Shown here: in pieces, positions 17,134 through 19,804 of the stretch
Position numbering within the stretch: position 1 is the stretch's first letter
Layout: each line of letters starts with the position of its first letter
NCBI RefSeq assembly: GCF_003363015.1
Contig: NZ_QRAP01000001.1
Coordinates: 729,162-793,161 of the forward strand
Length of the DNA stretch: 64,000 nucleotides
Direction of reading: 5' to 3'
DNA from: Enterobacillus tribolii
GTDB lineage: Bacteria > Pseudomonadota > Gammaproteobacteria > Enterobacterales > Enterobacteriaceae
Program-made: the position numbers and the translations under genes
The notes under the pieces: generated by a model
What the model saw: the letters and a program-made list of their open reading frames with translations, nothing else
What the model was told of the DNA's origin: nothing
Database searches by the model: none

Positions 17134-17353
17134 TTTCCGTTCCGCCGGTTTATGCCATGCCCGCACCGGGTTATATCTGGATGCATCAGGATAACCAGGG
17201 TTGGCACCGCACGTATCATGTTTGACATCATCCCGGACATCCAATACCACCGCCTCTGCCGGTATGACGCCCTCAGCAGCCATATTCACCGGGCGCATCG
17301 CACAGATACTTTATGGCACCTATAATTGCAGGGTAATGAACGGAGGTGTTTCT

Positions 17354-17530
17354 ATGAAATCCATCTTTATCGCCCTGGCGATCTGTGTCCTCTCAGGTTG
17401 TCTATCACCGGGAGGATCTCAGCCGTCTTCAGATGGCTCTGCTCCTCATGATAACTTACAAACCTGTGATGGTCCTGATAACGGAGCGGGTAACAGCTGT
17501 GCACAATCCGTGATGCCGGATACCTATTGA
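17354..17530 (+). CDS. Small predicted lipoprotein, unrecognised
   Basis: This 58-residue protein has a lipoprotein signal MKSIFIALAICVLSGC: the lipobox LSGC puts the lipidated Cys at residue 16. The mature part is short and polar (Ser/Gly/Asp-rich) with two more Cys. A strong GGAGGTG ribosome site lies six bases before the ATG. A perfect TATAAT at 17321-17326 is a plausible -10, though no good -35 is evident. Readings that begin further upstream have no support. It converges on the double-glycine peptide pair. A linked role such as immunity is possible but only suggested by position. Confidence 0.72.
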   Translation: MKSIFIALAICVLSGCLSPGGSQPSSDGSAPHDNLQTCDGPDNGAGNSCAQSVMPDTY

Positions 17531-17575: not shown

Positions 17576-17602
17576 AAAGCCGCGATAATCTATCGCGGCT
17601 TT
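17576..17602. terminator. Terminator between the lipoprotein and peptide genes
   Basis: AAAGCCGCGATA and its complement form a 12-bp stem with a very small loop. T tails are weak on both sides. It probably ends the plus-strand lipoprotein gene and perhaps also the minus-strand peptide gene. Confidence 0.65.
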
Positions 17603-17671: not shown

Positions 17672-17866
17672 TTATTTGCAGTAGCTATAATCAACGGGTT
17701 TCCAGCTTGAAGATACCTGCCGGCCATGCTTATCATAGCATGAATCATCTTTTACACAGTTCGTTTTACCACCGGCAACGGCAGGCGAGCCAAAGTAATA
17801 GCGGGTATAACACGTATTACCACCGCCGACGACATTTTCAATATCCATAAGGGTTGTAAACTTCAT
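17672..17866 (-). CDS. Cys-rich double-glycine leader peptide A (microcin-like)
   Basis: This 64-residue precursor starts with a 15-residue leader, MKFTTLMDIENVVGG, matching the class II microcin/bacteriocin leader pattern (compare the microcin V leader, also 15 residues ending GG). The predicted core is about 49 residues with four Cys spaced C-x17-C-x5-C-x19-C and the motif C-Y-D-K-H-G-R. AAAGGAAA seven bases before the ATG is a good ribosome site. The same spacing and DKHG motif recur in the neighbouring peptide, so the two are paralogues. It may belong to the small enterobacterial DUF4762 group (from memory, unverified). No peptidase-containing exporter is visible in the window. Confidence 0.8.
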   Translation of the reverse strand: MKFTTLMDIENVVGGGNTCYTRYYFGSPAVAGGKTNCVKDDSCYDKHGRQVSSSWKPVDYSYCK

Positions 17867-17969
17867 AATAATTTCCTTTAACTATGGGGATAATAACTCA
17901 ATCATTGAATATAAATATACAAAGAGGGGGAAATAAAAAAGAGCGTAGCCTTTTTTATTTCATTTTTAC

Positions 17970-18158
17970 TCACTTGCCTTTACAGTAGCTATCACTGACG
18001 GCAGAATTGTAATTACCGCTTACCTTTCCATGCTTGTCTCTGCACTGGAACAGCTGCGTGCAACTACCATTGCTGGTCCTGCTATAGCCAATAACACTAC
18101 AGCTGGAACTGGCGCCACCGGTAACACGCGCAACGTCGTTCATTGAAGCCTGCTTCAT
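17970..18158 (-). CDS. Cys-rich double-glycine leader peptide B (microcin-like)
   Basis: This 62-residue precursor has a 15-residue leader MKQASMNDVARVTGG with the conserved N-[DE], V-x-G-G and GG at 14-15. The core of 47 residues has four Cys, C-x12-C-x5-C-x19-C, with C-R-D-K-H-G-K. The last two Cys spacings are identical to peptide A. A GGGAGTT site precedes the ATG by six bases. A weak A/T-flanked hairpin at about 17935-17960 may end its transcript before peptide A. The surrounding DNA is much more AT-rich than the core genome, which suggests transfer. An exported antimicrobial or signalling peptide is an inference from the leader. Confidence 0.8.
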   Translation of the reverse strand: MKQASMNDVARVTGGASSSCSVIGYSRTSNGSCTQLFQCRDKHGKVSGNYNSAVSDSYCKGK

Positions 18159-18838: not shown

Positions 18839-18955
18839 AACCGGGGTTCCACCCTCTTTACGGTTTAAGAAAGACTGCCGTTGCGAAAAAATTCGGTAGA
18901 TCACACGGATTTAGGTAGAATTCCTGTCAGAGGATATCCGTTATCAGGTCAACCT

Positions 18956-19804
18956 ATGCGAATACTGCGTTTGATTTTTTTGTGTCTTCCGGTCATCTGC
19001 TCCTCGTTATGGCTGACTTTCGCCTATGCCGACGACGACACCCTGTCGCCTGACGAGCAGTTGCGCTTGTTTTACGGTAAGGACGACCGCATCAAAATTA
19101 AAGACGTCGGCGACTGGCCCTGGCAGGCCATCGGGCAAATCGAGACGGAAAGCGGCAACCTGTGCACGGCTACGCTGATCGCGCCTCATCTGGTTCTTAC
19201 TGCCGGCCACTGCGTATTGGCCCCGCCGGGAAAGCTGGACCGCCCTGTCGCCCTGCGTTTTGTATCCCGCAATCACAAATGGCGTTATGAAATTACTCAG
19301 TTGAAAGCACTGGTCGATATGCGGCTCGGCAAACGTCTGAAGCCCGACGGAGAGGGTTGGGTCGTTCCCCCTTCCGCCGCCACGCAGGACTATGCGTTGA
19401 TCAGGATCGACAGCGACGACTTGCCACCGCTGCGTCCCATTCCGCTCTGGAAAGGCGATGTTTCTCAGCTAAACGAAGCCCTGAAGGCAACCGGCCGCCA
19501 TGTTACTCAGGCGGGCTACCCGCAGGATTTTCTCGACGACCTGTACAGCCATGAAAACTGCCTGATCACCGGTTGGGCGCAGAAAGGCGTATTCAACCAT
19601 CAATGCGACACCTTACCCGGCGACAGCGGCTCTCCATTATTGCTGAAAGATGCCTCTGGCCTCTGGAGCCTGGTCGCCATACAGAGTTCCGCCCCGGCGC
19701 CGGAAAACCGTTACCGGGCCGACAACCGTGCGGTTTCCGCTACCGCCTTCAATGACGAGCTAAAAGCCTTGCTGCAACAACCCGTCGATTCCGGCGAAAA
19801 ATAG
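18956..19804 (+). CDS. ydgD: YdgD, predicted secreted trypsin-like serine protease
   Basis: This 282-residue S1-family protease homologue is exported. The signal peptide covers about residues 1-23, cut near TFAYA-DD. The catalytic triad is visible: His in LTAGHC, Asp in QDYALIRID and Ser in LPGDSGSPLL. A Cys pair and the ENCLITGW segment fit the glutamyl-endopeptidase-like subgroup. I chose the ATG at 18956 because it gives a proper signal peptide and has AGG seven bases upstream; the frame stays open upstream without support. The substrate is unknown. It follows ydgU, as in E. coli. Confidence 0.87.
   Translation: MRILRLIFLCLPVICSSLWLTFAYADDDTLSPDEQLRLFYGKDDRIKIKDVGDWPWQAIGQIETESGNLCTATLIAPHLVLTAGHCVLAPPGKLDRPVALRFVSRNHKWRYEITQLKALVDMRLGKRLKPDGEGWVVPPSAATQDYALIRIDSDDLPPLRPIPLWKGDVSQLNEALKATGRHVTQAGYPQDFLDDLYSHENCLITGWAQKGVFNHQCDTLPGDSGSPLLLKDASGLWSLVAIQSSAPAPENRYRADNRAVSATAFNDELKALLQQPVDSGEK

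What the first reader, a model, noticed from the sequence alone, without database searches (positions are those of the whole stretch)
17672..18158. Tandem pair of Cys-rich peptides with microcin-V-type double-glycine leaders
Two neighbouring minus-strand genes encode 64- and 62-residue precursors. Each has a 15-residue leader ending V-x-G-G, the length and pattern of the microcin V leader. Each core has four Cys with identical last spacings (C-x5-C-x19-C) and a shared C-x-D-K-H-G motif. Both have good ribosome sites and lie in AT-rich DNA. This looks like a diversified family of exported, probably disulfide-bonded or modified peptides. No exporter or modifying enzyme is in the window, so they may use an exporter encoded elsewhere, or a domestic one. 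A possible relation to the DUF4762 group is from memory.
Basis: partly seen in the sequence, partly recalled or inferred. Interest (0 to 1): 0.75.

Follow-up and report, generated by a model that had tools for sequence, protein, structure and literature searches.

The report
Satellite precursors of a lipopeptide-like export system
Two small genes encode cysteine-rich peptides that belong to an apparently undescribed enterobacterial system which seems to trim, disulfide-bond, probably fat-tag and export ribosomally made peptides; the machinery is encoded elsewhere in the same genome.

Summary
In detail: two minus-strand genes encode 64- and 62-residue precursors with 15-residue double-glycine leaders and four-Cys cores. 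This genome has seven such precursors. Two of them head an 11-gene cluster: precursor, DsbA-like oxidase, LpxL-like acyltransferase, C39-ABC exporter, MacA, MacB, TolC, FabF, MaoC dehydratase, acyl carrier protein, FabG. In 392 genomes of the family the precursor occurs in 46, the acyltransferase in 47, both in 45. Of 62 precursor loci examined (40 of the 46 genomes), 41 lie in such a cluster. In 70 distinct precursors GG, K-x-G and the second Cys never vary; the first and third Cys are missing only in the two of these 41 clusters without the DsbA gene. The window pair are therefore satellite precursors, probably processed in trans. Best reading: a ribosomal, disulfide-bonded, probably Lys-acylated exported peptide. 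Acylation is inferred, not shown. No recurring immunity gene was found, and 20 of 41 clusters have fimbrial genes nearby, so a surface role is at least as likely as a bacteriocin. Ten searches of a partial library found no description.

The parts
17672..17866 (-). precursor W1, 64 aa, with stop codon
   Evidence: family match in own genome
17822..17866 (-). 15-residue double-glycine leader of W1 (MKFTTLMDIENVVGG)
   Evidence: GG in 70/70 family members
17729..17731 (-). codon of Lys46 of W1, the invariant Lys of K-x-G and candidate acylation site (inferred)
   Evidence: K in 70/70; in the turn between strands 2 and 3 of a low-confidence model (mean pLDDT 65)
17970..18158 (-). precursor W2, 62 aa, with stop codon
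   Evidence: family match
18114..18158 (-). 15-residue double-glycine leader of W2 (MKQASMNDVARVTGG)
18033..18035 (-). codon of Lys42 of W2, the equivalent invariant Lys
17931..17960 (-). perfect 11-base inverted repeat after W2 (A/T-rich arms, T-run in the second arm), possible terminator between the two genes
   Evidence: not listed by the terminator scan
17576..17602 (.). G+C-rich hairpin after W1, possible terminator shared with the convergent small ORF
   Evidence: read; not listed by the scan

Best explanation
The tandem pair are satellite precursor genes of a conserved exported-peptide system whose machinery lies elsewhere in the same genome (two full copies). Proposed order of events: (1) the precursor is made with a 15-residue GG leader; (2) an LpxL-like acyltransferase transfers a fatty acyl chain, made by the cluster's own FabF, MaoC, ACP and FabG, to a side chain, most likely the invariant Lys of K-x-G, in the cytoplasm while the leader still blocks the N-terminus; (3) the C39-ABC exporter cuts after GG and moves the core to the periplasm; (4) the dedicated DsbA-like protein forms two disulfides, probably C1-C3 and C2-C4; (5) MacA-MacB with the cluster's TolC-type channel moves the product to the cell surface or outside. 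Shown here by sequence: membership of the pair in the family, genetic linkage and co-occurrence of precursor and machinery, conservation of likely catalytic residues, and joint absence of two Cys and the DsbA gene. Inferred: processing of the window pair in trans, acylation of the peptide and its site, the disulfide pairing, the order of steps. I lean slightly to a surface or adhesion-linked role over killing, without proof.
For: Cluster anatomy in G000. Context: 41 of 62 precursor loci examined lie in the cluster (60 loci; the window pair and the C5 orphan are the other two). Among the 41, C39, MacA, MacB, TolC and KS matches were found in 41, ACYL in 40, DSB in 39; 37 have the order precursor-DSB-ACYL-C39-MacA-MacB, with TolC-KS following in the same stretch in 35 and in the adjoining stretch for L018 and L019. 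Co-occurrence in 392 genomes: precursor 46, ACYL 47, both 45 (Fisher p 1.6e-55, not corrected for kinship). Invariant residues: GG, C2, K, G in 70/70. Clusters with DSB have at least four core Cys in 39/39; clusters without DSB have two in 2/2. Two further clusters without DSB have a different two-Cys GG peptide. In the sequences over that script's score limits: C39 Cys18, His91, Asn107 in 44/44; ACYL His139 and Asp143 in 44/44; each Cys of DSB C-x2-C in 38/39. On three of the four cluster plasmids searched, a precursor lies elsewhere on the plasmid, so distance from the cluster is not unusual. Among the seven of this genome, the leaders of W1 and W2 are closest to that of the cluster-1 precursor (7/15 and 8/15 identical; next best 6/15).
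Against: No acylated product, cleavage or export has been seen. ACYL matches Lip_A_acyltrans weakly: 10 of 16 members at E<=0.01, not the cluster-1 copy, and there is no PDB relative. The whole-peptide tree does not place W1 or W2 with the cluster-1 precursor. No shared upstream motif above shuffles. G309 keeps 4-Cys precursors although the DSB gene was not found in its cluster. Two ACYL genomes lack the family (G290, G293). Lys invariance could be partly enforced by the profile used to find members. MaoC, ACP and FabG were read only in a few clusters, because the fetched stretches mostly end at the ketosynthase. No other species of the genus is held, so selection on the window pair could not be tested.
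Confidence: 0.58

Rival explanations
1. The peptide is exported and disulfide-bonded by the cluster, but the acyltransferase and the fatty-acid genes make a separate lipid (for example a changed lipid A or glycolipid that protects the producer or anchors the product); the peptide itself carries no acyl chain.
For: ACYL resembles lipid A acyltransferases. Cell-envelope sugar genes lie near some clusters: beyond FabG of cluster 1 of this genome comes a DNA polymerase theta-like ORF on the other strand and then a heptosyltransferase-family ORF (PF01075); on E. coli plasmid p1 of strain Br_190_kylling and on a TUM9812 chromosome remnant, polysaccharide deacetylase, glycosyltransferase and CptA genes (lpxM too on the remnant) follow the fatty-acid genes.
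Against: In 37 of 41 clusters ACYL lies between the thiol oxidase and the peptide exporter. An invariant Lys in otherwise variable cores asks for a reason. In cluster 2 of this genome I read no such sugar gene just after FabG.
Confidence: 0.24
2. They are antibacterial class II microcins in the ordinary sense, exported by the C39 exporters L023 or L024 of this genome, without acylation.
For: GG leaders; two further C39-ABC exporters with an adjacent fusion-protein-like ORF and a Cys-His-Asp triad exist in the genome. Class II microcins are widespread in Enterobacterales (title and passages of PMC9746304).
Against: Members of this family sit beside a different exporter type in 41 of 62 loci. 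No recurring immunity-like small gene was seen beside precursors.
Confidence: 0.12
3. The window pair are stranded copies left by duplication or transfer and are not expressed or processed now.
For: AT-rich island, no partner genes read nearby, divergent from every other member, promoter-like sites no more than in shuffles.
Against: Both frames, ribosome sites, GG, four Cys and K-x-G are intact. 19 further orphan loci keep GG and K-x-G too; one of these, L106, is at a contig end.
Confidence: 0.12

Closest known systems
Pfam DUF4762 (PF15959)
   Same: Same family by profile: two paralogues of this genome are over the cut-off (38.5 and 34.6 bits).
   Different: The window pair are under the cut-off. 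The Pfam model itself finds only 5 of 60 relatives. Its name says unknown function, and no paper of the library names it.
Class II microcins (MccV type)
   Same: GG leader; C39-ABC exporter, membrane fusion protein and TolC-type channel; Cys in the core as in class IIa (passages of PMC13174018).
   Different: Dedicated DsbA, acyltransferase and fatty-acid genes; MacA-MacB; Cys-His-Asn triad, which the published cinful filter (Cys, His and Asp required; passages of PMC9746304) would drop; no recurring immunity gene seen.
Fatty-acylated RiPPs: lipolanthines, goadvionins, selidamides, nostolysamides
   Same: Ribosomal peptide with leader plus an acyl transfer; in nostolysamides the acyl goes to a Lys side chain (passages of PMC13060382).
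   Different: Those are lanthipeptides acylated by GNAT enzymes. Here an LpxL-like enzyme, probable disulfides instead of lanthionines, and a dedicated set of separate fatty-acid enzymes.
Aat system of CexE/dispersin
   Same: Acyltransferase coupled to a TolC-type channel and a Lol-like ABC pump, putting an acylated small protein on the surface (abstract and one section of PMC7943197).
   Different: AatD is Lnt-like and acylates an N-terminal Gly of a Sec-exported substrate; here a GG leader, a C39 exporter and an LpxL-like enzyme.

Membership tests
Pfam DUF4762 | score over the gathering cut-off of 27 bits | tested here: not met
   W1 15.9, W2 12.2 bits; two paralogues over the cut-off
The precursor family defined here (profiles A1, A4) | GG leader of 15 aa, C2-x5-C3, K-x-G, final Cys | tested here: met
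   note that W1 and W2 are among the seeds
Class II microcins | precursor with double-glycine leader | tested here: met
Class II microcins | C39 peptidase-ABC exporter with Cys-His-Asp triad in the genome | tested here: inconclusive
   the cluster exporters have Asn as third residue, 44/44; two other exporters of the genome have Asp
Class II microcins | cognate immunity protein beside the precursor | tested here: inconclusive
   no recurring immunity-like small gene within 3 kb of precursors in 60 loci (one search showed only its 14 largest groups); an immunity gene found in fewer than three genomes would escape this test
Class II microcins | antibacterial activity | not testable with these tools
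   bench test needed
Fatty-acylated RiPPs (GNAT type) | GNAT acyltransferase and lanthipeptide synthetase in the cluster | tested here: not met
   the Pfam and NCBIfam lists shown for the cluster-1 products and some E. coli cluster products have neither; an LpxL-like enzyme is present instead
Ribosomal lipopeptide (wide sense) | fatty acyl chain on the mature peptide | not testable with these tools
   inferred from ACYL and the fatty-acid genes only
Aat secretion system | AatD of the C-N hydrolase family and a Sec-exported substrate | tested here: not met
   ACYL members match PF03279 and no other Pfam family at E<=0.01; the substrate has a GG leader

The most novel reading that the evidence does not exclude
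A new class of ribosomal lipopeptides in Enterobacteriaceae: a cluster-own dissociated fatty-acid synthase feeds an LpxL-type acyltransferase that modifies an invariant Lys at the tip of a hairpin of a disulfide-bonded peptide, which is cut by a Cys-His-Asn C39 exporter and sent out by MacAB-TolC, with one set of machinery serving scattered satellite precursors such as the window pair; the products coat the cell and act with fimbriae rather than kill.
Probability: 0.35. Interest if true: 0.9.

Novelty: new variant of a known kind. Interest (0 to 1): 0.75.

Why it matters
If right, about one in eight or nine enterobacterial genomes sampled (46 or 47 of 392, in 24 to 26 of 154 genera), and some conjugative plasmids of E. 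coli and Salmonella, carry an undescribed route to exported, disulfide-bonded and probably fat-tagged peptides, with an enzyme type that none of my paper searches showed in peptide acylation. It gives a function to test for DUF4762, explains orphan precursors far from any exporter, and may have been missed by microcin surveys because of the Asn in its peptidase triad. A single expression experiment with mass spectrometry would decide the main point.

Tried and rejected
Looked for a curated name: Pfam gives only sub-cut-off DUF4762, NCBIfam nothing. PF15959 at E<=10 also rings in 9 of 14 control genomes, none over the cut-off, so weak hits of that model were not used as evidence. The one genome-contig scan, with the cluster-1 C39 exporter, gave a single 29%-identical Brachyspira locus and no named relatives. 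tblastn of one precursor against plasmids found nothing, although profile A4 later found precursors on three of the four plasmids searched: single-sequence searches miss this family. PDB sequence searches with ACYL and with precursor profile A1 found nothing. The structure model of W1 is of low confidence (mean pLDDT 65, two sequences), and Foldseek gave no match at E<=0.001, so no fold is claimed. A shared upstream motif of the seven precursors of the genome was not above shuffles. Recurring neighbours: one search printed only its 14 largest groups, so I repeated the test without ORFs that overlap known genes. Groups in three or more genomes then were a fimbrial-type ORF (15 genomes), frames that I read as antisense or as shared chromosomal neighbours (for example CheY-like in L098, L101, L103), and none that reads like an immunity gene. 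The tree of 73 precursors has long branches; W1 groups with a G309 orphan (0.87) and W2 with a mixed clade (0.62), which does not support the leader-based link to cluster 1. Considered and dropped: lipoprotein by the usual signal (I read no lipobox in W1 or W2).

Limits: context was fetched for 40 of the 46 genomes with a match (G064, G222, G251, G297, G319 and G401 were left out by my choice). That gave 60 of the 62 loci in the scripts; the window pair and the C5:272131 orphan were read separately. The script counted 70 precursors (67 plus W1, W2 and the C5 orphan) with two starts set by hand; the six unfetched ones were not counted. That searches drew the same 392 genomes is taken from their equal size and matching handles. 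The class-wide search used the ACYL alignment, not the precursors (1 of 369, the own genome). The E. coli count is by megablast and misses divergent copies. Some clusters (L075, L094) appear in fragments.

Full report
What is in the window. The two ORFs are as described: 17672..17866 (-) with 64 residues and 17970..18158 (-) with 62 residues. Each has a 15-residue leader ending in GG, a core with four Cys, C-x5-C-x19-C and C-x-D-K-H-G. A perfect 11-base inverted repeat with A/T-rich arms lies between the genes (17931..17960), so they may be separate transcripts; the terminator scan does not list it. Neighbours are ordinary: a histidine kinase, a carboxypeptidase M32 and a trypsin-like protease, and a large minus-strand helicase with DUF3418, as in HrpA (the name HrpA is recalled).

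The family in this genome. A search of the window's own assembly with W1 found five places including the pair. The profiles A1 (12 seeds) and A4 (45 rows) each find seven precursors. Two of the five others lie at the head of a gene cluster: at C1:863171 (L018, about 116 kb from the window pair on the same contig) and at C5:392441 (L019). The other three, like the window pair, have no such cluster in the stretches read (L020, L021, L022).

The cluster. In L018 and L070 the order is: precursor; DsbA-like protein (PF01323, 44 bits); a 316-residue protein, ACYL; C39 peptidase-ABC exporter (PF03412, 76 bits); MacA-like; MacB-like; TolC-type channel (PF02321); FabF-type ketosynthase; MaoC-type dehydratase (PF01575, 32 bits against 27); acyl carrier protein; FabG-type reductase. 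L019 and L071 have the same order by reading and by match. ACYL of L018 has no hit over the Pfam cut-off; that of L019 reaches 22.7 bits against 22.3, and that of an E. coli plasmid 32.3, for Lip_A_acyltrans. Over 16 members, 10 match that family at E<=0.01. So the name LpxL-like acyltransferase is moderately supported.

Spread and linkage. In 392 genomes of the family (drawn evenly by the tool) 46 have a precursor at E<=0.001 and 47 have ACYL at E<=1e-10; 45 have both, one has only the precursor (G339, 73% complete), two have only a distant ACYL (G290, G293), 344 have neither. The Fisher value, 1.6e-55, ignores kinship, but the matches fall in 24 and 26 of 154 genera. A class-wide search with ACYL found only the own genome among 369. 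I fetched context for 40 of the 46 genomes. Of 60 loci with a precursor in the scripts, 41 are clusters and 19 are orphans; with the window pair and the C5 orphan that makes 41 of 62. Of the 41, all have matches to C39, MacA, MacB, TolC and ketosynthase, 40 have ACYL (the other, L094, is in fragments), 39 have DSB. 37 have the order precursor, DSB, ACYL, C39, MacA, MacB; in one the precursor sits between ACYL and C39 (L117). 38 of the 40 genomes have at least one cluster beside a precursor; the exceptions are G309 (cluster without adjacent precursor) and G339 (precursor at a contig end).

What does not vary. In 70 distinct precursors GG is present in 70, the second Cys in 70, K and G of K-x-G in 70, the third Cys in 68, while the residue after GG is free (T 27, A 9, C 7, N 6 and nine other kinds). 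My reading of the alignment rows gives a last Cys in all 70 and a first Cys in 68. The two precursors that lack the first and third Cys (L126 of G035, L127 of G402, one genus) belong to the only two of the 41 clusters without a DSB gene; 39 of 39 clusters with DSB have at least four Cys. This is probably one evolutionary event, but it points to C1-C3 and C2-C4 pairs and to DSB acting on the peptide. A second case: G290 and G293 have rearranged clusters in which no DSB was found, and a different GG peptide with two Cys and a K-D-G (good ribosome site in L131). Against this: in G309 the precursors have four Cys although DSB was not found in its cluster, and the plasmid cluster of Chimaeribacter arupi has, by my reading of the translation, a DSB with most of its middle missing and no precursor on the plasmid.

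Enzyme residues. In the 44 C39 sequences over the script's score limit Cys18, His91 and Asn107 are invariant. Alignment with two CvaB-like exporters of the same genome shows that Asn stands where they have Asp. In 44 ACYL sequences His139 and Asp143 are invariant; the H-x4-D/E motif of lipid A acyltransferases is recalled, and the spacing here is one shorter. DSB keeps C-x2-C (38 of 39 at each Cys) and a T-P pair (38 and 39 of 39) that I take for the cis-Pro loop.

Why acylation of the peptide, and why Lys. The simplest reason for a ketosynthase (41 of 41) and an acyltransferase (40 of 41) in a peptide-export cluster, with dehydratase, ACP and reductase where I could read on (the two clusters of this genome, four plasmids, and in part G309, G290, G293), is to make and transfer an acyl chain. 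Enzymes of the LpxL type use acyl-ACP on the cytoplasmic face (recalled), where the leader still covers the future N-terminus, so a side chain is more likely. The only invariant nucleophiles of the core are Cys and one Lys. This is inference. In the low-confidence model that Lys is in the turn between strands two and three.

Orphan precursors. Precursors away from the cluster are common in this system: 21 of 62 loci here (one of them, L106, at a contig end), and on three of the four plasmids searched the precursor lies 3 to 45 kb from the cluster. So the lack of an exporter in the window is no argument against function. The leaders of W1 and W2 are closest to that of the cluster-1 precursor (7/15 and 8/15, next best 6/15), but the tree does not confirm it.

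What it may do. No recurring immunity-like gene was found beside precursors. 20 of 41 clusters have chaperone and usher matches in the fetched stretch and 17 have a LuxR-type regulator; among 19 orphan loci three have an usher match, one of which is L106 at a contig end. Kinship explains much of this, since 17 share one arrangement, but L083/L090 and L081 differ, and each of the three plasmid precursors lies near adhesin genes: an HMW-type adhesin, an F4-type usher, or an adhesin regulator. 21 of 41 clusters show no such match, and neither does the window. In E. coli the cluster is on plasmids of 9 of 5,426 complete genomes, by megablast. GG peptides need not be antibiotics: in Synechococcus they serve biofilm formation (abstract of PMC4997328). 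I therefore rate a surface role about as likely as a bacteriocin, or slightly more.

What is in print. DUF4762: 0 papers. Lipidated or acylated microcin or bacteriocin, six phrasings: 0 papers. Searches combining C39, MacB, DsbA, acyl carrier protein, ketosynthase, LpxL-like and RiPP terms listed nothing that describes this cluster in the titles and abstract starts shown (one search was for Aat). The survey of class II microcins (PMC9746304, passages) kept only exporters with Cys, His and Asp, and its main text has 0 occurrences of DsbA, MacB or acyl. The library lacks most subscription journals, so prior description cannot be excluded.

Noticed in passing
L131:18528-18755 (-) and L132:18276-18542 (-): A second type of GG-leader precursor (two Cys, K-D-G) in rearranged clusters of G290 and G293 in which no DsbA gene was found; no Pfam match.
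   Followed up: partly
L065:6850-7044 (+), plasmid NZ_CP119396.1 of Chimaeribacter arupi: Apparent internal deletion of the DsbA-like gene in an otherwise largely complete cluster, by reading the 64-residue product.
   Followed up: partly
L023 and L024 (G000 C3:316304 and C2:574484): Two further C39-ABC exporters with adjacent fusion-protein-like ORFs in the same genome; near L023 lie a radical SAM/SPASM ORF and a sulfatase ORF. Their peptide substrates were not sought.
   Followed up: partly
L018:3297-3854 (+) and L070:6635-7729 (+): Cluster 1 sits downstream of a DsbB gene (PF02600) and upstream, after a theta-like ORF, of a heptosyltransferase-family ORF (PF01075).
   Followed up: partly
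window 17327-17530 (+): Small ORF convergent with W1; from its inner Met it reads like a short lipoprotein (L-S-G-C) with three Cys in all; no Pfam match.
   Followed up: partly
window 18881-19804 (+): Trypsin-like serine protease (PF00089, E 7.7e-13) beside the peptide genes.
   Followed up: partly
L137 and L136: On an E. coli plasmid and a chromosome remnant the fatty-acid genes are followed by polysaccharide deacetylase, glycosyltransferase and CptA genes (lpxM too on the remnant), which might be self-protection.
   Followed up: no
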